This document shows positions 18,198-57,089 of a stretch of DNA of 64,000 bases, one piece after another. Numbering within the stretch: the stretch's first letter is position 1; the number at the start of each line of letters is the position of its first letter. The stretch lies in assembly GCF_900101985.1 (NCBI RefSeq), contig NZ_FNAR01000010.1:1-64000 (forward strand). Reading direction: 5' to 3'. Source of the stretch: Bhargavaea beijingensis. GTDB taxonomy: Bacteria; Bacillota; Bacilli; Bacillales_A; Planococcaceae. The notes under the pieces were generated by a model. The model had not been told where the DNA came from. It saw only the letters and a list, made by a program, of their open reading frames with translations, and ran no database searches. A program made the translations under genes and the position numbers.

Positions 18198-18958
18198 ACG
18201 TGGTAAGGTCAATCCGGACATATGGCTATCTTTTCGGCTATCTGCCTTTTTCCATCCCGGCTCTCAGGCAGGTCCGCCGGATGAAGGGTGACGCCTCTCC
18301 GGAAAAGCTGGCCGATACGGTCATCAGGGAGCCGAGAAGGTGGGCAACCGGCATTTTGCGCAGGACAAACAGCGACATCCGTATGTCCATCAAAGGAAAC
18401 TTGCCGGACGGGCCGGTGCTGTTCGTCAGCAACCATGAAGGGAACTTTGACATCCCGGTTTTGATCGCCCATCTTCCAAAGCCGTTCGGATTCATGTCCA
18501 AAGAAGAAGTCAGGAAACTGCCGGTCATCCGGAAGTGGATGGAAGAGATGAACTGTGTGTTCGTCGACCGCTCGGATAGGCGAAGCGCCGTCCGTTCCAT
18601 TTATGACATGGCGGAAAAACTCCGATCCGGCCACTCGATGCTCATTTTCCCGGAGGGAACGAGAAGCCGGGGCGGAAAGCCGGGTGACTTCAAATCCGGA
18701 TTCGTCCGTATCGCAAAAGAAGGCGAGGTCCCGATCGTCCCGGTCGCCATCCATGGAACGTCCGACATCATGGAGCGGAACAACAACCGGATCCGACCGG
18801 CCCATGTCACGGTCGACGTCCTGGAAGCCATCAGCCACCAGGAGATCCTTGACCGATCCGCCGCCGAGATCACCCGGCTCATCCAAGACAGAATCCGTGA
18901 AGCAACGTCGGAACGGGCCGCTGAAAAACAGCAGCAGGAAACCGGAAACCCGGCTTAA
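18194..18958 (+). CDS. plsC: 1-acyl-sn-glycerol-3-phosphate acyltransferase (PlsC family)
   Basis: This 254-residue membrane-associated enzyme transfers an acyl chain to lysophosphatidic acid to give phosphatidic acid. The NHxxxxD motif is NH81EGNFD86, and the substrate-binding FPEGTRS motif lies at about 152-158. An N-terminal hydrophobic segment and a basic C terminus complete the family picture. The start is a TTG overlapping the dfrA stop. B. subtilis has the same thyB-dfrA-ypkP order, so this is probably YpkP. Confidence 0.93.
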   Translation: MNVVRSIRTYGYLFGYLPFSIPALRQVRRMKGDASPEKLADTVIREPRRWATGILRRTNSDIRMSIKGNLPDGPVLFVSNHEGNFDIPVLIAHLPKPFGFMSKEEVRKLPVIRKWMEEMNCVFVDRSDRRSAVRSIYDMAEKLRSGHSMLIFPEGTRSRGGKPGDFKSGFVRIAKEGEVPIVPVAIHGTSDIMERNNNRIRPAHVTVDVLEAISHQEILDRSAAEITRLIQDRIREATSERAAEKQQQETGNPA

Positions 18959-18970
18959 ATCTGGAAATAT

Positions 18971-18998
18971 CAAAAGACAGCCGGAAACCCGGCTGCCC
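18971..18998 (-). terminator. Terminator of the HlyIII gene
   Basis: On the minus strand CAGCCGGG and CCGGCTG form a tight hairpin followed by TCTTTTG. It may also stop transcripts arriving from plsC. Confidence 0.7.
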
Positions 18999-19637
18999 TC
19001 ATGCATACAGCAATATGGAGAAATACATCGCGGCGCTTCCGCCGATGACGAACAGATGCCAGATGGCATGATTGTACGGAATCCGGCGCCAGGCGTAGAA
19101 GATGGCCCCGACGGTATACAACAGGCCGCCGATGACGAGCAGCGTGATCCCGCCGGTGCCGATCACCGAATGGAGCGGCCGGATTGCAAAAACGATCAGC
19201 CAACCCATCGCGATGTAGAAGATGAGGGATACCGCTTCATACCGGTGGATAAAGAATACCTTGAACAGAATTCCCAGGACTGCAAGCCCCCATACGATTC
19301 CGAACAGGGTCCAGCCGAGCGTCCCGCCGAGCGAGGTCAGGACGAGCGGGGTGTAGGTTCCCGCAATCAGCACATAAATCGACGAATGGTCGAGGATCGA
19401 AAAGAATCGCTTATATTTGGCTGGCATACTATGAAGCAATGTCGACATGAGGTACAGCACGAGCATGGATACGCCGAAAATGGTATAGGCGGTTACATGG
19501 AGTGCCGACCGGTACTCGCTGCCTTTCAGGATGAGGAAGACAAGTGCGGGAATGCTCAGGACGAAACCGAGTCCGTGCGTGATGGCATTCCACAATTCTT
19601 CCTTATTGTTCTTGTAATCAAAGGCCAAGGCCTCCAC
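18999..19637 (-). CDS. yplQ: Hemolysin III/PAQR-family membrane protein (TrhA)
   Basis: This 212-residue protein has seven hydrophobic helices and the HlyIII/PAQR signature: EELWNAITHGLG in the first part, STLLHSM and FSILDHSSIY with the conserved Ser/His/Asp metal site, and NHAIWHLFV near the C terminus. Bacterial members influence membrane-lipid homeostasis and fluidity. The start is uncertain: I use the GTG at 19637, but AGAGAG is close to it and a TTG nine bases later is also possible. It diverges from degV. Confidence 0.9.
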   Translation of the reverse strand: MEALAFDYKNNKEELWNAITHGLGFVLSIPALVFLILKGSEYRSALHVTAYTIFGVSMLVLYLMSTLLHSMPAKYKRFFSILDHSSIYVLIAGTYTPLVLTSLGGTLGWTLFGIVWGLAVLGILFKVFFIHRYEAVSLIFYIAMGWLIVFAIRPLHSVIGTGGITLLVIGGLLYTVGAIFYAWRRIPYNHAIWHLFVIGGSAAMYFSILLYA

Positions 19638-19647
19638 CTCTCTTTTC

Positions 19648-19677
19648 TTGACTTTGCCGTCCGCCGGATTCTATTCT
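19648..19677 (+). promoter_or_regulatory. Candidate promoter of degV
   Basis: TTGACT (19648-19653) and TATTCT (19672-19677) are separated by 18 bases, about 55 bases before the degV start. Confidence 0.45.
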
Positions 19678-19731
19678 TCTCTTACCACCAATACCAGCAA
19701 GCGAATCAGCGCAATCTGAAGGGGCGACAAG

Positions 19732-20571
19732 ATGACAACCATTCATATCGTAACAGACTCAACAGCAGATATCAGCAGGGAGACCGTCCGCGAGCTCGGC
19801 ATCCACGTCGTGCCGCTTTCCATCCAGATCGACGGCAAAACGTATGTCGATCAGGTCGATCTGTCCCCGGAAGAATTCCTGGACATGATGGCGGAAAGCG
19901 TGGAGCTTCCGAAAAGTTCCCAGCCGCCTGTCGGTGTATTTAAGGAACTGTATGAACTTCTCGGTAAGGAAGGCGGAAAAATCCTGTCCATCCATATGAC
20001 CGGCGGCATGAGCGGAACCGTCGAGTCGGCCCGGGCCGCAGCCGAACTTGCCGATGCCGACGTGACCGTGATCGATTCGGAGTTTATCTCCTTCGGTTTG
20101 TCATTCCAAGTTCAGGAGGCTGCAAAGATGGCAAAGGACGGGAAAGACTTCGAAGAAATTTTGGAGCGGGTCGACACGATCCGGAAAAACACCGCACTGT
20201 ATGTGGTCGTGGATACGCTTGAAAACCTTGTAAAAGGCGGCAGGATCGGAAAAGGGAAAGCCATGATCGGTTCTTTGATGAACATCAAGCCGATTGCGGC
20301 ACTGAAGGACGGAGTTTACACACCTGTCGGTAAGGCAAGAAGCCATAAGCAAGTCGTGCGCCAACTTTTCAACAGTTTCAAGGAGCAGACAGTCGGCCGC
20401 AAACTCCGGGCAGTCGGCATCTCGCATGCAAACGGCCTGGCGATGGCAGATCCGCTCAAGCAAATGATCGAAGAGGACGGCTTCAATGACGTGAAGATGA
20501 TGTTCACTTCTCCCATCATCAGTACCCACACCGGTCCCGGTGCGATTGGCTTCATGTATTACTGGGATTGA
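19732..20571 (+). CDS. DegV-family fatty-acid-binding protein
   Basis: This 279-residue protein has the DegV fold, which binds a single fatty acid; the FakB proteins of this family present fatty acids to the kinase FakA. The start IHIVTDSTADIS, the middle KSSQPPVG, HMTGGMSGT and DSEFISFGL, and the C-terminal HTGPGAIGFMYYWD motif are all standard. No FakA gene is adjacent. The gene is monocistronic with a strong terminator. Confidence 0.93.
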   Translation: MTTIHIVTDSTADISRETVRELGIHVVPLSIQIDGKTYVDQVDLSPEEFLDMMAESVELPKSSQPPVGVFKELYELLGKEGGKILSIHMTGGMSGTVESARAAAELADADVTVIDSEFISFGLSFQVQEAAKMAKDGKDFEEILERVDTIRKNTALYVVVDTLENLVKGGRIGKGKAMIGSLMNIKPIAALKDGVYTPVGKARSHKQVVRQLFNSFKEQTVGRKLRAVGISHANGLAMADPLKQMIEEDGFNDVKMMFTSPIISTHTGPGAIGFMYYWD

Positions 20572-37310: not shown

Positions 37311-37340
37311 GGTTTGCATGATCATAAGGAGGAATCCACC

Positions 37341-38600
37341 TTGGCAGAAATCAAAGTGCCTGAACTTGCAGAATCCATCACGGAAGGAACGGTCGCCCAG
37401 TGGCTGAAACAGCCGGGCGAACAAGTAGAAAAAGGCGAATTCATCGTCGAACTCGAGACTGACAAAGTCAACGTCGAAGTCATCTCCGAAGAAGCGGGCG
37501 TAGTCCAGGAACTGCTCGCAGAAGAAGGCGACACAGTGGAAGTCGGACAGGTTATTGCCATCGTAGGCGAAGGTTCCGGCGCAGCCGCAGCTCCGGCTGA
37601 AAAGCCTGCAGCGGAAGCGGCACCTGCTCCTGAAGCGAAAAAAGAAGAGCAGCAGGCGGCACCTGCTGCCTCCGTGGAAGCAAGCGAAGAAGCCGGCGCC
37701 GGCGACCGTACGATCGCCAGCCCCGCAGCGCGCAAGCTTGCCCGCGAAAAAGGCATCGACCTCGCTTCCATCACACCGGTTGATCCGATGGGCCGTGTAC
37801 GCGTCCAGGACGTCGAAGCGGCAGCTGCTGCGCCTAAGCAAGCGCCACAGCAACAGGCTGCCAAACCTGCGGCACCGGCCGTTTCCTCAGATGAAGAATC
37901 CGGCCGCGTAACACGCGAGAAAATGTCGCGCCGCCGCCAGACCATCGCAAAGCGTCTTCTGGAAGTTCGCCAGAACACAGCGATGCTCACTACTTTCAAC
38001 GAAATCGACATGACAAACGTCATGGAACTGCGCAAGCGCAAAAAAGACGAGTTCGAGAAGAAGTTCGGTGCACGCCTCGGCTTCATGTCCTTCTTCACGA
38101 AAGCGGTCGTTGCGGCTCTTAAACAGTACCCTTACGTGAACTCCGAGCTTGACGGCAATGACCTCCTGCTCAAGAACTACTATGATGTAGGGATTGCGGT
38201 ATCCACGGAAGAAGGCCTTGTCGTACCGGTTGTGCGTGACGCAGACCGCAAGAACTTTGCCGAGATCGAGAAAGACATCGCCGACCTCGCGACAAAGGCC
38301 CGCGACAAGAAGCTTGCACTGTCCGACCTTTCCGGAGGTTCGTTCACGATCACAAACGGCGGCGTATTCGGGTCGCTCTTCTCCACACCGATTCTGAACG
38401 GCACGCAGGTCGGGATTCTCGGCATGCACACCATCCAGAAGCGCCCTGTGGCAGTCGGCGACAACGTCGAAATCCGCCCGATGATGTTTGTTGCGCTTTC
38501 GTATGACCACCGAGTCATCGACGGCAAAGACTCCGTCGGCTTCCTGAAGACTGTCAAGGAAATGATCGAGAATCCGGAAGACCTTCTCCTCGGTTCCTGA
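37341..38600 (+). CDS. odhB: Dihydrolipoyl succinyltransferase (E2)
   Basis: OdhB (419 residues) is the E2 core of the 2-oxoglutarate dehydrogenase complex. The lipoyl domain has Lys42 in ETDKVNV. An Ala/Pro/Glu-rich linker, a peripheral-subunit-binding domain (about 130-165; [18 protein letters not shown]) and the catalytic domain follow, the last with H390 and D394 in SYDHRVIDG. The start is TTG 37341 after AAGGAGGAA with good spacing; the frame also begins upstream at ATG 37314, but without a ribosome site. The E3 subunit is not in the window. Confidence 0.97.
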
Positions 38601-38613
38601 TCTGCAATACGAT

Positions 38614-38645
38614 GAAAAACGCCTCTTAATGGGGCGTTTTTTGTT
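38614..38645 (+). terminator. Terminator of odhAB
   Basis: AAAACGCC and GGGCGTTTT with a short loop are followed by TTTTTTG. Confidence 0.9.
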
Positions 38646-38698
38646 TGGGGTTTGCGGAGTCGTCAAGGGGGACGGGGCTTTTCATTTGCTGTTGCGGT

Positions 38699-38861
38699 TT
38701 CGTCATTCGCCTGTTTGGATTCGTCATTCATCCCGGCGGTTTCCGCATTCCGGCAGATCATTTCGTCATTGGGGCATCCGCTTGGGACGAATGACGAAAT
38801 TGCGGTCGTGAATACTGAAACCGGAGCCATGAATGACGAGACTTTTCCCGTGAATGACGAA
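38699..38861. repeat. 21-bp-periodic mirrored array, copy A (4+4 units)
   Basis: The 9-mer TTCGTCATT stands at 38699, 38720 and 38762, with a degenerate TTCCGCATT at 38741: four units spaced exactly 21 bp. Its reverse complement AATGACGAA stands at 38790 and 38853, with AATGACGAG at 38832 and a degenerate AATACTGAA at 38811: again four units spaced 21 bp. The whole forms a mirrored array around a 19-bp centre. A weaker unit (CTTTTCATT) may lie at 38678. It sits in the 350-base gap between the odhAB terminator and the DUF6501 promoter. No ribosome site makes it look coding, although one frame gives a heptad NDET-like peptide on either strand. Confidence 0.92.
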
Positions 38862-38937
38862 ACCCGCACACCAGATAAAACACTCACCCCGCAAACTATG
38901 CCCACTCCACTTTACACAATACGCTCCACCTGTATCA

Positions 38938-38967
38938 TTGAAATCAGGGATCCCTTTTGTCTATAAT
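38938..38967 (+). promoter_or_regulatory. Promoter of the DUF6501 gene
   Basis: TTGAAA (38938-38943) and a perfect TATAAT (38962-38967) are separated by 18 bases, 29 bases before the start codon. Confidence 0.7.
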
Positions 38968-38995: not shown

Positions 38996-39193
38996 ATGGA
39001 TTTTAGGCAGTGGAAAGACGCGCCGGCGATCCGCACAGTGACGTGCAAGCATACGGACGCGGAAAAGTACTTAGTGTCGAATGTGCTGACACCGGGCAAG
39101 GAATACGAAGTGAAAAACGAGACCGATGAATTCATTTTTGTCGTGGACAACACGGGCAAAGTCGGCGGTTTCTATAAAACGTATTTTGAATGA
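38996..39193 (+). CDS. DUF6501-family small protein
   Basis: This 65-residue protein is typical of a small conserved Bacillales family (DUF6501): W-K-D-AP-x-I-R-T-V-T-C-K-H-T near the start, LTPGKEYEVKNETDEFIFVVDNTGKV in the middle and a C-terminal FYKTYF. It looks like a compact beta-rich domain. The function is unknown. AAAGGAGGCGG precedes the ATG. It has its own promoter and terminator. Confidence 0.85.
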   Translation: MDFRQWKDAPAIRTVTCKHTDAEKYLVSNVLTPGKEYEVKNETDEFIFVVDNTGKVGGFYKTYFE

Positions 39194-44499: not shown

Positions 44500-44532
44500 G
44501 TCATTAATTGAACAAAAGGACTGGAAACACGG

Positions 44533-44597
44533 ATTCACCTATTATAAAAAGTGATCGGGGTTCAAGTCGGTACTTTTTATAATATGTGAATTTTTTT
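44533..44597 (+). promoter_or_regulatory. Terminator-like attenuator hairpin in csp leader
   Basis: The arm at 44533-44552 (ATTCAC...AAAAAGT) pairs with 44572-44591 (ACTTTTT...GTGAAT) over 20 bp with one mismatch and a 19-nt loop. It is directly followed by six further T residues (44592-44597). This has the form of an intrinsic terminator, yet it lies between a consensus promoter and its only gene. CCTCC at 44601-44605 could in addition pair with the GGGGG ribosome site at 44642-44646. It could be a temperature-sensitive attenuator. Confidence 0.75.
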
Positions 44598-44656
44598 GTT
44601 CCTCCAAAAAAGTTCCATATTAAAATTATTTCTTTTAAGTTGGGGGTAAAGTCAAC

Positions 44657-44857
44657 ATGAAACAAGGTACAGTAAAATGGTTCAACGCGGAAAAGGGATT
44701 CGGCTTCATCGAGGTTGAAGGCGAAGACGACGTATTCGTACACTTCTCCGCCATCCAGGGCGAAGGCTTCAAGACGCTTGACGAAGGCCAGCAAGTTGAG
44801 TTCGAAGTTGTCGAAGGCAACCGCGGACCACAGGCTGCAAACGTCGTCAAGCTCTGA
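44657..44857 (+). CDS. Cold-shock protein (CspB-like)
   Basis: This 66-residue cold-shock domain protein (RNA chaperone) has RNP1 KGFGFIE and RNP2 VFVHF intact, and differs from the copy at 328 mainly in residues 18-24 and in its C terminus (NVVKL). It is preceded by a consensus promoter and a long leader with a strong hairpin, and closed by its own terminator, so it is an independently regulated unit. The ribosome site is GGGGG, ten bases upstream, weaker than that of the first copy. Confidence 0.96.
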
Positions 44858-44873
44858 GCGGCGGATTCATATG

Positions 44874-44905
44874 GAGGCTTCCGGATGTTCCGGAAGCCTC
44901 TTTTT
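44874..44905 (+). terminator. Terminator of csp
   Basis: GAGGCTTCCGG and CCGGAAGCCTC form an 11-bp perfect stem with TTTTT. Confidence 0.93.
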
Positions 44906-51399: not shown

Positions 51400-52420
51400 A
51401 TCCCGCCTGTCAAATAGATGCAATATACAAGTTCAATGATTGCAATAAGAGATTATTGCAACAGATCCATTGAAAGCGCTGTATAATATTCCGATAATTG
51501 AAAGGTGCAAGTATAACTATTGCATTTGTGTACCTATTTGATGTCATATTGCAATTAAGTTAAAAACCAAAGATCGGGTGTGCAGTTTGCGGGTTATTTT
51601 GTGTCCATCCATCTGAGAATCGCGATTTTCAAACAGTGGCCGATGAGCCATGGATACACATGATGATTCTTTACTCACGAAGCACTTTAAGACCTGTAGG
51701 AAATGTGCAATCCGGCACTAGTAATAAGCGGCATTCAAAAAAGCGAATCAAGCTTTTTGAGACTCATGAGTTGATCCGTTATCAAAGCTGGATGCTAAAA
51801 GCAAGCCGACAGCGAAGCGTTCTTATTCAATGCTCGATATGCATTGAAATCGAAAGGGCCATGAGCACTCAACAAACCATTTGATTGGCGTGGTGTACCG
51901 ATGATGATATGCGGTATGCTGGATTGGATAGGAGGAGAGGATTCGGGGCTCAAACGGCTTCTCTTGTTTTTAGTTTACATAATTTCTATTTTAGGAAGTT
52001 GCGTTTCATTATGTAGTATACTCCTGATATTGAGACGAAACGGAAATTTGGGTCTTGGAGTTGCCTGGTTCAGCGGTTTGGGATGTATTTCTTCATTGAG
52101 ATCTGTTTGTTTATTTGATTCATCCTGTTTGATCCGGGATGGATCAGTGAGATGCTTATACCTGATCAACATCCATTCGCTTTCGTCTCATTTCTGTTGA
52201 GACGTATTTCGGACCTTGGCCGTTTCTGTTGATATGTCGGATGCTTTTTCTACTGGCTTTTTGGCTTGATGACCGTTTTCATCCGTTTATCCAGCTGTTT
52301 CCTGTTTATCGGATCCGGTTCGGCAACTCCAGTTCCGATTATTTGCACAAAACCCTTTGCATTCTTTTCTTCTTCATGTTAACGTAGTACACAAGATTCA
52401 AACTAACACAATTGAATAGC
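51400..52420. other. AT-rich region without recognisable genes
   Basis: About 1 kb here has markedly lower GC than the rest of the window, with ATTGCA/TTGCAA motifs repeated near 51420-51555. All six frames are short and none resembles a known family. The longest is a 99-codon frame at 51901-52200, whose stop falls inside a hairpin (CGTCTCA 52184-52190 / TGAGACG 52198-52204). It and a 65-codon frame on the opposite strand (51975-52172) exclude each other. A strong AGGAGGAG near 51931 is not followed by a usable start. The region could be decayed foreign DNA or an unrecognised RNA locus. Confidence 0.55.
51470..51498 (+). promoter_or_regulatory. Promoter-like sequence in AT-rich region
   Basis: TTGAAA (51470-51475) and GATAAT (51493-51498) are spaced by 17 bases. 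TGAAAGCGCT overlapping the -35 resembles the left half of a CcpA site. The transcript would run into a region with no recognised gene. Confidence 0.45.
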
Positions 52421-52597
52421 AATGGATGAGGTGCAAAGATCATGAGTACCCCGCTGCAACGGCTGCAGACCGGTAGCGGGCGGAAAGGGAGATTTGCCGA
52501 AACGGGATTTGGTTCGCAGACTGTTTCCCGTTGGACTGTATATGAACAATATGCAGGCTGTCATTATTCTCGTAATAATGGAGTGCTTCCACTTGTG
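52421..52597 (+). promoter_or_regulatory. Lysine riboswitch (L-box)
   Basis: This stretch reproduces the lysine aptamer core in the right order. GAGGTGC (52428-52434) is followed by AAGATCATGAGTA. AAAGGGAGATTTGCCGAA matches the AAAGGGGAG...GCCGAA block of the B. subtilis lysC leader. GGCTGTC (52556-52562) leads into a hairpin (ATTATT/AATAAT) and then GGAGTGCTTCCAC. A terminator follows at 52634. It stands before dapA-dapB, the right place for lysine feedback. Binding of lysine would favour the terminator and switch the operon off. Confidence 0.9.
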
Positions 52598-53642: not shown

Positions 53643-54389
53643 ATGAGATTGCTGCTTTGCGGGTATGGCGCGTCGAACCGGCGCGTCGCTGCCCTTGCCA
53701 AGGAACGGGGACATGAAATTGTGGGCGTGTTGCTGCTGCGCGGCCAGACGGCGGACGGCTTTCCGGTTTATCGTCCGGATGAGCGCCTGCCGGAAGCCGA
53801 TGCGGTCATCGACTTCTCGCATCCTGTCCTGACGAAAGCCCTGCTTGATGCGGACACCGGCCTCCCGCTGGTGATCGCGACCACAGGCGAAAAGGAAGTC
53901 CTGATCAAGCAGATGAGGGAAAAGGCGGTCCGCCAGCCGATCTTCTTCAGCGCGAACATGAGCTACGGCGTCCATATCCTGTCGGAAATCGTCCGGTATG
54001 CCGCTTCCCTCCTACCCGGCTTTGATATTGAAATGACAGAACGCCATCACCGCAAAAAGGTGGATGCGCCGAGCGGGACGCTCATCAAGCTGTATGACGC
54101 CATCGCTTCGGCCAGGCCGAATGTCCATCCCGTACACGACCGCCACCAGACGGAAGGCGCGCGGACGGACGAAGAAATCGGGATCCATTCGGTGCGCGGG
54201 GGCACGATCACCGGTGAGCACGAAGTGCTGTTTGCAGGCCACGATGAGACCATCACCATTGCACACCATGCACAGTCCAAGGATATTTTCGCATCCGGCG
54301 CACTCGATGTCGCAGAGCGCCTGATCCATAAGGAAAACGGCTATTATACTTACGATAACCTCGGAATCGGCGATTCCGGAGAGGAATGA
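53643..54389 (+). CDS. dapB: 4-hydroxy-tetrahydrodipicolinate reductase
   Basis: DapB (248 residues) reduces the DapA product with NAD(P)H. The N-terminal nucleotide loop is GYGASNRRV rather than the common GAxGRMG, like the shorter staphylococcal form. The catalytic ERHHRKKVDAPSGT motif and GTITGEHEVLFAG are complete. Its start lies just after the dapA stop (TGACATG), so translation is coupled. Confidence 0.96.
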   Translation: MRLLLCGYGASNRRVAALAKERGHEIVGVLLLRGQTADGFPVYRPDERLPEADAVIDFSHPVLTKALLDADTGLPLVIATTGEKEVLIKQMREKAVRQPIFFSANMSYGVHILSEIVRYAASLLPGFDIEMTERHHRKKVDAPSGTLIKLYDAIASARPNVHPVHDRHQTEGARTDEEIGIHSVRGGTITGEHEVLFAGHDETITIAHHAQSKDIFASGALDVAERLIHKENGYYTYDNLGIGDSGEE

Positions 54390-54416: not shown

Positions 54417-54448
54417 TCTTATGCTTTTTAATCACTTTCTGCTGCGGT

Positions 54449-54561
54449 TTCGTCATTCACACGTCTGGTTTGGTCATTTCAACAGATCATTTCGTCATTG
54501 GGATGTGCTGAATGACGAAATTGCGGGCGCGAATGCAGAAACCGGTACGATGAATGACGAA
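54449..54561. repeat. 21-bp-periodic mirrored array, copy B (3+3 units)
   Basis: TTCGTCATT stands at 54449 and 54491, with a variant TTGGTCATT between them at 54470: three units spaced 21 bp. AATGACGAA stands at 54511 and 54553, with a variant AATGCAGAA at 54532: three units spaced 21 bp. It shares with copy A (38699) the centre CAGATCATTTCGTCATTGGG and the outer GCGGTTTCGTCATTC, but lacks one unit pair. It lies between the terminators of the convergent dapB and parC genes. Confidence 0.9.
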
Positions 54562-54587
54562 ACCGGCAACACCTTATTCCTGAAAAC

Positions 54588-54640
54588 AAACGCCCCCCTG
54601 CCTGCAGCCTTTTTGGCGTGCGGACAGGGGGGGCCCGTTT
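54588..54640 (-). terminator. Terminator of parEC
   Basis: On the minus strand a long GC stem (CCCCCCTGTCC / GGCAGGGGGG) is followed by CGTTTGTTTTC. Confidence 0.65.
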
Positions 54641-57089
54641 ATGGCTGTTCGTTTTCTTTGGCTTTCATATCAACTTCAAGATAAACAGAGGTCACATAAC
54701 CGTCTTCTTTCTGGTCGACAACGAAGCTGCCATTTGAGTATCGGTCGGCCATCCGGTAGGAATGCGCCAGGACGGCCACTTCTTCGTCCTTGTCCGTCCG
54801 CAAAATGACGGTGTCTTCTCTTCCGGCCAGAACGACACCCGCCAACCGGTGCGGATTCGTCTTCAGTTCTTTTAATGATACGAGGCCGCGTTTTGCCCGC
54901 GTGCCGAGCTCGTATTCATCGACCGGCATGCGCTTGACCGCCCCTCGGTGTGTTGCCAGGATCAGCGAACGGCTGTCTTCCGGTGAACGGAGAACCGAAG
55001 ACACGACGTAGTCCCCGTCTTTCAGGTTGATGCCTTTGACGCCCGCCGTGCGGACACCTGTAGGTGCGACTTCCTCCAGCGGGAAACGGAGCCCGTAGGC
55101 AAGATGCGTGAAGAGCATTACTTCGTCGGTGGCCCTTGCCAGGTGCACCGACAGCAGGGTGTCCCCCTTCTTGAGGGAAACGGCCCGGTAGGCCCGGTTG
55201 TGCCGCTTGACCTGGTAGTCGGCGAGTGCGGAGCGCTTGATAAAGCCGCCCTTGGTGACCGTGACCACGTCCATGTCTTCGCGGTCGAATGAATCGATGC
55301 CGATCGCGGCGATGATCTCCTCTTCCGGGCCCAGCTGGATGATGCTCGATATATGCTGTCCGAGGTCCTTCCAGCGGATATCCGGCAGCTCATGGACCGG
55401 CTGATAGATGTAATTGCCTGAAGAGGTGAAGATCAGGAGTGTCTGCTGGGTGTTGAGCGTGCCACCGAACAGCAGGCGGTCGGTTTCCTTCATCTCCAGA
55501 TCGCGGCCGCCGGACGCCCCGTAGGAGCGCAGGCTCGTGCGCTTGGCGTAGCCGTCTTTTGTGACGGTGACGACGACGTCCTCGCTCGGGATCAGGATGT
55601 CCAGGTCGACCTTGATTTCCTGGATCTGAGCCTCGATGGCAGAGCGCCGCGGCTCGGCAAACCGCTTTCTGATGTCTTTCAGCTCGTTTTTGATCACTCG
55701 GAACAGCTTTTTCTCGGAAGCGAGGATTTCGGTGAGTTCCTGGACAAGCGCCTTGAGCTCTCCCTCTTCCTTTTTCAGCTCCGTGATATCCGTGTTTGTC
55801 AGACGGTAAAGCTGGAGGGAGACGATCGCCTCCGCCTGGGGTTCGGTGAACTCGAACGATTCGATCAGGTTGTTTTTTGCATCCCGCTTGTCGCTGGACG
55901 CCCGGATCGTGCGGATGACCTCATCGAGGATCGACAGGGCCTTCATGAGCCCTACCACGATGTGGAGCCGGTCTTTTGCACGCAGCAGGTCATACTCCGA
56001 GCGCTTTGTGACAACTTCCTTCCGGTGCGCGATATAGGCATCCAGCAGCATGCCGAGTGACATGAGTTTCGGGCGCCGCGCATCGATTGCGATCATATTG
56101 AAGCTGTAACTGACCTGAAGATCGGTGTTTTTGAACAGATACTGGAGGATCGCTTCACCGTCGATGTCTTTTTTCAGCTCGACGACAATCCGGAGGCCGG
56201 TGCGGTCGGACTCGTCGCGGACTTCCGAAATGCCTTCAAGTTTCCGGTCGAGCCGGAGCTCATCCATTTTCTTGACGAGATGTGCCTTGTTCACTTCGTA
56301 AGGAATTTCCGTGATGACAATCTGCTGCTTGCCGCCGCGAATTTTCTCAATCTCCGTCTTCGAGCGGACGATGATCTTGCCGCGTCCTGTATCATAGGCC
56401 TTTTTAATGCCTTCAGCGCCTTGGATGATGCCGCCGGTCGGAAAATCCGGCCCCCGCAAAACGGTCATCAGTTCATCGGTTGTCGCCTGTGGATTATCGA
56501 TTCTCATAAGGACCGCATCAATCACTTCGTGGAGGGCATGAGGCGGGATATCTGTTGCGTATCCCGCGGAAATGCCCGTCGAGCCGTTGATCAGCAGGTT
56601 CGGGAGCACAGCCGGCAGGACTGTCGGCTCGTTTTCGTTGTCATCATAGTTGGGGATGAAGTCGACGGTGCGCTTGCCGATATCGCGGAGCATTTCGGAA
56701 GCGATTGCGGACAGGCGGGCTTCCGTGTATCTCATGGCCGCTGCCGGGTCGCCGTCGACAGATCCGTTGTTTCCGTGCATCTCGATCAGCGGGTGCCGGA
56801 GCTTCCAGTCCTGGCTCATCCGGACCATCGCTTCATAGACGGAGGAATCGCCGTGCGGGTGATACTTGCCGATCACGTTCCCGACCGTCTTCGCCGATTT
56901 CCGGAATGGTTTGTCGTGTGTGTTGTTTTCTTCCATCATCGCGAACAGGATGCGCCGCTGGACAGGCTTCAGTCCATCGCGCGCATCGGGCAATGCCCGG
57001 TCCTGGATGATGTATTTACTGTACCGCCCGAAGCGGTCGCCGATGACCTCTTCGAGCGGAAGGTCTTGGTATTGTGCGGTTTCCGTCAT
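54639..57089 (-). CDS. parC: DNA topoisomerase IV subunit A
   Basis: ParC (816 residues) is the DNA-cleaving subunit of topoisomerase IV, which unlinks daughter chromosomes. The catalytic Tyr121 is in [10 protein letters not shown]. The quinolone-determining residues are wild type (Ser82 and Glu86 in [10 protein letters not shown]). The GyrA-type C-terminal beta-pinwheel follows, beginning near 490 and lacking the strict GyrA box, as expected for ParC. Its ATG overlaps the parE stop (ATGA). Confidence 0.97.

What the first reader, a model, noticed from the sequence alone, without database searches (positions are those of the whole stretch)
38699..38861. Mirrored 4+4 array of a 9-mer at strict 21-bp spacing
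Four copies of TTCGTCATT, one degenerate, stand at 38699, 38720, 38741 and 38762. Four copies of the reverse complement, two with changes, stand at 38790, 38811, 38832 and 38853. Every step is exactly 21 bp, or two helical turns, so all sites lie on one face of the DNA, and the two halves point at each other around a 19-bp centre. This is too regular for chance and is not a terminator. Inference: it could be a cooperative landing platform for a dimeric or oligomeric DNA-binding protein (nucleoid architecture, partitioning, replication control). Alternatives are a miniature mobile palindromic element, or a long cruciform/RNA hairpin with loops at each spacer. I know of no described system with this layout.
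Basis: partly seen in the sequence, partly recalled or inferred. Interest (0 to 1): 0.78.

Follow-up and report, generated by a model that had tools for sequence, protein, structure and literature searches.

The report
Mirrored 21-bp-pitch intergenic motif arrays
Between its genes this bacterium keeps dozens of small arrays in which a short DNA word repeats exactly every 21 letters (two helix turns), and relatives have arrays with the same spacing but a different word, which hints at an unknown DNA-binding system.

Summary
In detail: 4+4 mirrored 9-mers at 21-bp steps, 5 of 8 exact. It is one of 29 arrays called in this Bhargavaea genome (135 motif pairs at pitch 21, reversed control 0). The unit has 14 conserved columns (RRT-TTCGTCATT-CR) and 7 free ones. 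In an 80-kb stretch, arrays sit at the same 3 places in six species; elsewhere arrays come and go. Between two species the core changes less (12%) than free columns (29%) or flanks (21%). Arrays lie 3' of genes, favour convergent pairs and avoid divergent ones. Arm spacers do not pair, core changes are not compensated, and RAYT transposases were not found.

The surprise: the pitch outlives the word. Two Bhargavaea without TTCGTCATT carry GAATGTTAAG at pitch 21 (66 and 22 pairs); two genomes of another genus carry TTACTTGC at pitch 21 (38 and 40 pairs).

Best reading: platforms for a cooperative, sequence-specific DNA-binding protein, one site per two helix turns, between transcription units. 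No protein is identified. Ten open-access paper searches gave no description.

The parts
38696..38772 (+). Left half of array 1: four units RRT-TTCGTCATT-CR at 38699, 38720, 38741 (2 changes), 38762
38771..38789 (.). 19-bp centre of array 1 (step 28 between inner 9-mers)
38788..38864 (-). Right half of array 1: four inverted units at 38790, 38811 (3 changes), 38832 (1 change), 38853
54446..54501 (+). Left half of array 2: three units at 54449, 54470 (1 change), 54491
54509..54564 (-). Right half of array 2: three inverted units at 54511, 54532 (2 changes), 54553; centre step 20
38611..38645 (+). Hairpin followed by T run just after odhB, probable terminator, upstream of array 1
   Evidence: hairpin in the fold, terminator by eye; the consensus scan did not list it
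38938..38967 (+). Promoter-like site (TTGAAA-18-TATAAT, 11 of 12) downstream of array 1
   Evidence: a consensus match only
37314..38600 (+). Upstream gene: 2-oxoacid dehydrogenase acyltransferase (odhB-like)
38996..39193 (+). Downstream gene: DUF6501 protein
53643..54389 (+). Gene left of array 2: dihydrodipicolinate reductase (dapB)
54639..57089 (-). Gene right of array 2, convergent: topoisomerase IV / gyrase subunit A type

Best explanation
Each array is a platform of binding sites for a sequence-specific DNA-binding protein that loads cooperatively, one protomer or dimer per 21 bp, so that the sites of one half face the same side of the helix. Shown: a constrained 14-bp core, free 7-bp spacers, an almost invariant 21-bp pitch, placement between transcription units (3' of genes, favouring convergent pairs, almost never between divergent genes), and arrays kept at the same places in six species in the stretch compared. 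Inferred: that a protein reads it, that loading is cooperative, and that the role is architectural or boundary-like (holding back read-through and supercoil spread between neighbouring transcription units, or anchoring the nucleoid). The inverted half would let the platform present the same orientation to either side; its distance from the first half is loose, so the halves probably act as two blocks.
For: 135 pairs at pitch 21 v control 0. Steps 21 in 94 of 104, 42 in 7. 14 conserved and 7 free columns in 130 own units. Core 118 of 993 changed, free 130 of 448, flank 315 of 1519 in 11 orthologous arrays of G000 and G007 (p 2e-14 core v free). Same three places in six species. One-sided arrays exist, and at place 2 the right half is kept where the left is reduced to one or two units, so the inverted half is not essential. 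Convergent 19, tandem 22, divergent 1 of 42 arrays v 20, 101, 37 of 158 background gaps.
Against: No protein is identified. The word differs between sister species, and one genome may hold several words (3 GAATGTTAAG pairs in G000; several in G003 and G006), so one reader cannot explain all. Arrays are gained and lost: 10 of 19 G004 and G005 arrays examined match no own array-bearing stretch held, and two followed up are absent from G000. Of 14 gaps inside aligned arrays only 6 are 21 or 42 long (some pairs align poorly). The core is not invariant. The background for gene orientation pools the same stretch in six species and uses simple gene calls; against the window alone the divergent deficit is p 0.07.
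Confidence: 0.45

Rival explanations
1. Intergenic satellites without host function: units duplicate by slippage at about two helix turns, arrays grow and shrink in tolerant DNA after terminators, and motif likeness across loci comes from an unknown copying or conversion process.
For: Exact tandem duplications of units or unit pairs occur (L061, L070, L078), a whole array is tripled in G007 (L095), unit numbers vary, arrays are lost at some places, and arrays of 50 or so near-identical units exist in a relative (L170).
Against: Slippage copies spacers with cores, but most spacers are unlike (adjacent-unit identity 0.332 v 0.312 shuffled) while the core is shared by loci across the genome and changes more slowly than flanks. 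It does not explain placement or one pitch for different words.
Confidence: 0.27
2. The transcribed array is an RNA hairpin with 14-bp helices and 7-nt internal loops that protects or ends mRNAs.
For: The window array folds far better than shuffles as RNA (z -6.9), as an inverted repeat must; arrays lie 3' of genes.
Against: Arm spacers are less alike than shuffled (0.242 v 0.306) and the deficit is the same out of register; core changes are compensated 1 time v 1.1 expected; one-sided arrays exist; a strict 12-base spacer is not needed for internal loops; the other words read are one-sided.
Confidence: 0.12
3. Non-autonomous mobile element: the mirrored halves are transposase-binding ends without cargo.
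For: Inward-facing multiple sites in mirrored halves resemble multi-site transposon ends (Tn7-like; recalled). Copies are dispersed and some places are occupied in some species only.
Against: Copies share only the core, not spacers or length; in the 80-kb stretch places are the same in six species; no target duplication or conserved outer edge was seen at two gain/loss sites or in the arrays printed; no match in viral contigs, plasmids or phages; Y1 transposases not found. Other transposase families were not tested.
Confidence: 0.08
4. DNA-uptake (self) words for natural transformation.
For: Species-specific dialects and 3'-end placement resemble uptake sequences (recalled).
Against: The word is not common outside arrays: lone exact 9-mers per 64-80 kb are 0-3 v 1.0-1.3 expected. 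Uptake words need no fixed pitch.
Confidence: 0.03

Closest known systems
REP / BIME elements (PMC2817692 abstract and outline; PMC3733652 passages)
   Same: Many dispersed extragenic copies, regularly spaced in alternating orientation in BIMEs, species-specific, said to bind proteins and to serve chromosome organisation or termination.
   Different: REPs are 20-40 bp palindromes with a tag (GTAG or CGTC) and, for GTAG, a RAYT transposase. Here the unit has no stem of its own, Y1/RAYT was not found, the pitch is strictly 21 bp and spacers are free. The CGTC inside the core looks like a REP tag, but the stem is missing.
Clustered close direct repeats surveyed in prokaryotes, pattern 8n4g24 (PMC4060949, passages and section 10)
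   Same: Four or more copies of an octamer with gaps up to 24; these arrays would be counted there.
   Different: That survey counts patterns by genome and growth temperature; the parts read report no fixed pitch, mirrored halves or species dialects.
Iterons and partition-site repeat arrays (recalled, no paper read)
   Same: Direct repeats at about two helix turns that load a protein cooperatively on one face.
   Different: Usually one or a few sites per replicon beside the gene of the binding protein; here about 29 per chromosome and no known reader.
bcr and STAR intergenic repeats of Firmicutes (recalled; PMC3446304 seen only as a listing)
   Same: Dispersed intergenic repeats in Firmicutes, some arrayed.
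   Different: Not compared by sequence here; I recall no strict 21-bp pitch with free spacers for them.

Membership tests
REP / BIME (RAYT-associated) | Unit is a palindrome that folds into a stem-loop | tested here: not met
   130 single units: mean MFE -1.42 v -1.78 shuffled
REP / BIME (RAYT-associated) | Cognate RAYT (Y1_Tnp) gene in the genome | tested here: not met
   PF01797 in 0 of 8 Bhargavaea; control rings in 5 of 14 named genomes
REP / BIME (RAYT-associated) | Extragenic, dispersed, many copies | tested here: met
   29 arrays called, almost all in gaps between called genes
Miniature mobile element (MITE) | Near-identical copies with terminal repeats and target duplications | tested here: not met
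   Only the core is shared; no duplication at two gain/loss sites
RNA hairpin / terminator | Arms kept complementary by compensatory change | tested here: not met
   1 compensated change v 1.1 expected; spacers not complementary
Known structured RNA | Match to an Rfam family over threshold | tested here: not met
   Nothing over threshold at the arrays; sroD at 28.3 bits, threshold 50, ends at 38643 before the array
Cooperative phased binding-site array (works like iterons or partition repeats) | Direct repeats of one core at a near-constant helical pitch | tested here: met
   94 of 104 steps 21, 7 steps 42
Cooperative phased binding-site array (works like iterons or partition repeats) | A protein that binds the core cooperatively | not testable with these tools
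   Needs pull-down, EMSA or ChIP
DNA-uptake sequence | Word over-represented singly across the genome | tested here: not met
   Lone 9-mers 0-3 per 64-80 kb v 1.0-1.3 expected, six genomes
Tn7-like transposon ends | TnsB-type transposase and paired ends around cargo | not tested
   No search for such genes was made

The most novel reading that the evidence does not exclude
A chromosomal array system spread through this family whose invariant is the pitch (21 bp, two helix turns) and whose word turns over between species like a dialect (TTCGTCATT or GAATGTTAAG within Bhargavaea, TTACTTGC in another genus). Fast-evolving DNA-binding proteins and their dispersed arrays would coevolve, a bacterial parallel to satellite DNA and its readers, setting boundaries between transcription units.
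Probability: 0.25. Interest if true: 0.88.

Novelty: new variant of a known kind. Interest (0 to 1): 0.75.

Why it matters
If a protein reads these arrays, they are a ready-made genome-wide map of its sites, with natural experiments built in: different words at the same pitch, one or two halves, gain and loss at known places. That would make it directly testable how bacteria insulate neighbouring transcription units or fold the nucleoid, and how a binding protein and its dispersed sites change specificity together. If no protein reads them, one pitch of two helix turns for unrelated words calls for an unknown process that makes repeats.

Tried and rejected
Rejected: chance (control 0). A coding heptapeptide repeat (the core is near-invariant at all codon positions, centre steps of any length occur, no gene was called at array 1). 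A known RNA family. A polar roadblock: in one-sided arrays between tandem genes the unit orientation agrees with the gene strand in 3 of 6 (read). Selection against perfect palindromes: the arm-to-arm deficit is the same out of register, so local strand composition is the likelier cause. Phage or plasmid origin (no match).

Led nowhere: paper searches by topic and by sequence string (one search was made for REP papers); repeating the family scan as 'order', which held the same 261 genomes. Not significant: restriction of pitch-21 arrays to this family (7 of 40 samples v 0 of 15, p 0.17); one sample of another family holds a period-40 array outside ORFs (L228), which may be a double of 20.

Rows left out before counts. 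Steps and centres: 25 of 29 own arrays (left out: both of L064, that of L081, the first of L076, which has a 24-bp step). Unit and arm statistics: 25 two-sided arrays, 18 of 19 own ones (L065 with a 22-bp step left out) and 7 of G004 and G005 (L084 with a 40-bp centre left out); one-sided arrays not used. Substitutions: 11 of 14 distinct G007 arrays (left out: the triple array, the first array of L220, and L217, which had no counterpart in the own loci held). Orientation: 42 of 43 arrays (L064:5742, weak and inside a called ORF, has no right neighbour). The arrays of L081 and L064:5742 are doubtful.

Full report
OBSERVATION. The window carries four forward and four reverse copies of the 9-mer at the stated places, all at 21-bp steps inside each half, with 28 bp across the centre. 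Five of eight are exact. A second array (3+3, centre step 20) lies at 54449-54561.

EXTENT. In the own genome (2,988,557 bases, 43 contigs) the pair at pitch 21 occurs 135 times with up to two mismatches and the reversed control 0 times (about 100 of the 135 places were listed). In 27 own stretches (the window and L056-L081) 29 arrays were called: 19 with both halves by script, 2 more (L063, L067) with a degenerate second half seen by eye, 8 one-sided, of which two are doubtful. Among 261 family genomes the exact pair is in 6, all of the own genus, 6 of 8 there. Among 151 genomes of the class it is in the two Bhargavaea included and in one genome with an unrelated 7-bp tandem repeat; the reversed control also matched 7 times in one other genome. 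A named scan for the mirrored centre in genome contigs (84,980 species) gave 16 stretches, all Bhargavaea.

UNIT. Over 130 own units from 18 two-sided arrays, 14 columns carry 0.72 to 2.0 bits (RRT-TTCGTCATT-CR) and 7 carry at most 0.41. Of 104 same-strand neighbour steps in 25 own arrays, 94 are 21 and 7 are 42; single steps of 22, 14 and 7 occur. Centre steps are 28 in 14 of 19.

HISTORY. In a syntenic stretch (80 kb in five species; for G000 the 64-kb window plus L059) arrays stand at the same three places in all six species, and none elsewhere in the stretches scanned. Unit numbers differ. The centre step tends to be inherited: at place 1 it is 28 in all six; at place 3 it is 17 in five species and 38 in G004. 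At place 2 it is 20 in G000 and 28 in G004 and G005, while in G007, G001 and G002 the left half is reduced to one or two units and the right half kept. Of 14 distinct G007 arrays examined, 13 lie beside the genes of a G000 array; of 19 G004 and G005 arrays only 9 do. In 11 aligned G000-G007 pairs the core changed at 118 of 993 sites, free columns at 130 of 448 and flanks at 315 of 1519; some pairs align poorly, which inflates all three. Of 14 gaps inside those arrays 6 are 21 or 42 long. Two arrays of G004/G005 were followed. Each is absent from the same place in G000, G002 and G007; G001 lacks the first, and at the second its two flanks lie on different contigs. Instead there is a bare terminator, other repeats or, for the first array in G003, a different array of 21-bp units seen by eye, without a visible target duplication.

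PLACE. Flanking genes are convergent for 19, tandem for 22 and divergent for 1 of 42 arrays (home-made codon-based gene calls; the divergent case rests on weak calls). Gaps of 100-700 bp in the syntenic stretches give 20, 101 and 37 of 158. Convergent excess and divergent deficit are significant against that pooled background (p 1e-5 and 8e-4; own 28 arrays only: 4e-4 and 0.02), weaker for own arrays against the window alone (0.02 and 0.07). Array 1 lies after a probable terminator of the odhB-like gene (hairpin; not listed by the scan) and before a promoter-like site of a DUF6501 gene. Array 2 lies between dapB and a topoisomerase IV/gyrase A type gene.

STRUCTURE TESTS. The window array folds well as RNA (z -6.9), as an inverted repeat must. 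But arm spacers are less alike than shuffled ones, also out of register, core changes are compensated once v 1.1 expected, and single units do not form stems. RAYT-type transposases were not found in 8 genomes. Viral contigs (two exact patterns), plasmids and phages gave no match.

DIALECTS. G003 and G006, the two Bhargavaea without the TTCGTCATT pair, have other repeats. After odhB, G006 has 2.7 units of period 21, while G003 has a tandem repeat of period 121. Elsewhere both have arrays of period 20-21 with several words. GAATGTTAAG at pitch 21 (up to 1 mismatch) occurs 66 times in G003 and 22 times in G006, and 3, 4, 5, 0, 0 and 2 times in G000, G001, G002, G004, G005 and G007; control 0. 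The 11 loci with this word that were read across lie between called genes (one overlaps a weak call) and are one-sided. In genus g13, TTACTTGC at pitch 21 occurs 38 times (G136), 40 times (G124) and 2 times (G130), and 0 times in the other 15 genomes asked, three of them also g13; control 0. An unbiased period scan (12-40 bp, four units, at least 8 invariant columns) of 40 random 20-kb samples, one each from 40 genomes in 11 other genera of the family, found 11 arrays of period 20-22 outside ORFs of 150 aa, in 7 samples from 6 genera. Other periods outside ORFs summed to 9, none more than twice. Inside ORFs mixed periods occurred (period 21 twice). Codon-block shuffles gave one array, of period 39. 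Fifteen samples of other families of Bacilli gave none of period 20-22 and one of period 40; 7 of 40 v 0 of 15 is not significant, so restriction to this family is not shown.

INTERPRETATION. A near-fixed pitch, a constrained core, free spacers and a changing word fit a protein that counts helix turns and reads a short core. Slippage can grow arrays but does not explain which columns are kept. Placement between transcription units suggests a boundary or architectural role; this is inference. Whether a protein reads it, and which, is open. Mirroring was seen only for the TTCGTCATT word.

LITERATURE. Ten searches of open-access full text gave listings without a description of such arrays. I read passages of PMC3733652, abstract and outline of PMC2817692, and passages and one section of PMC4060949. 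Subscription papers are not covered. Iterons, partition repeats, uptake sequences, bcr, STAR and Tn7 ends are named from memory.

Noticed in passing
L112, L113, L114, L115, L119 (G003); L116, L117 (G006): Several different words at period 20-22 within one genome, e.g. GCGGCTCACTC, GARACGTTAATTAGC, CCATACTCCGA (20 bp), GGTAGNGAYTC, CCGATTCG.
   Followed up: partly
L206:9610 and L206:10666 (G002): Another word, GCGTCGGCAA, at pitch 21 in a TTCGTCATT species.
   Followed up: no
L095:2853-3360 (G007): A whole mirrored array tripled in tandem at about 193 bp, while G000 has one array there.
   Followed up: partly
L170:11180-11900 and 18840-19880 (G253): Long arrays (tens of units) of TTCGTGCG-type words at pitch 21; the longest ends at a stretch that by eye looks like an IS66-type transposase gene (not searched).
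   Followed up: no
L102:2866-3379 (G003): Tandem repeat of period 121, 4.2 copies, right after odhB where relatives have the TTCGTCATT array.
   Followed up: no
L239, L240 (G001, G002): At the place of a G004 array these species carry other repeat-like DNA, including a shared stretch with GGGTGGACGCTTTCCGCGGGGAAGGC.
   Followed up: no
L082, L083, L085, L088, L089, L094: In these G004 and G005 arrays the right half leans to AATGACGAG-ATT while the left keeps TTCGTCATT; strand-biased mutation is a possible cause.
   Followed up: no
G399:C1:1027868-1027918: Unrelated 7-bp tandem repeat of TTCGTCA that mimics the 21-bp pair.
   Followed up: no
window 52418-52596 and 44516-44903: Lysine riboswitch and cspA thermoregulator, both over Rfam thresholds.
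   Followed up: no
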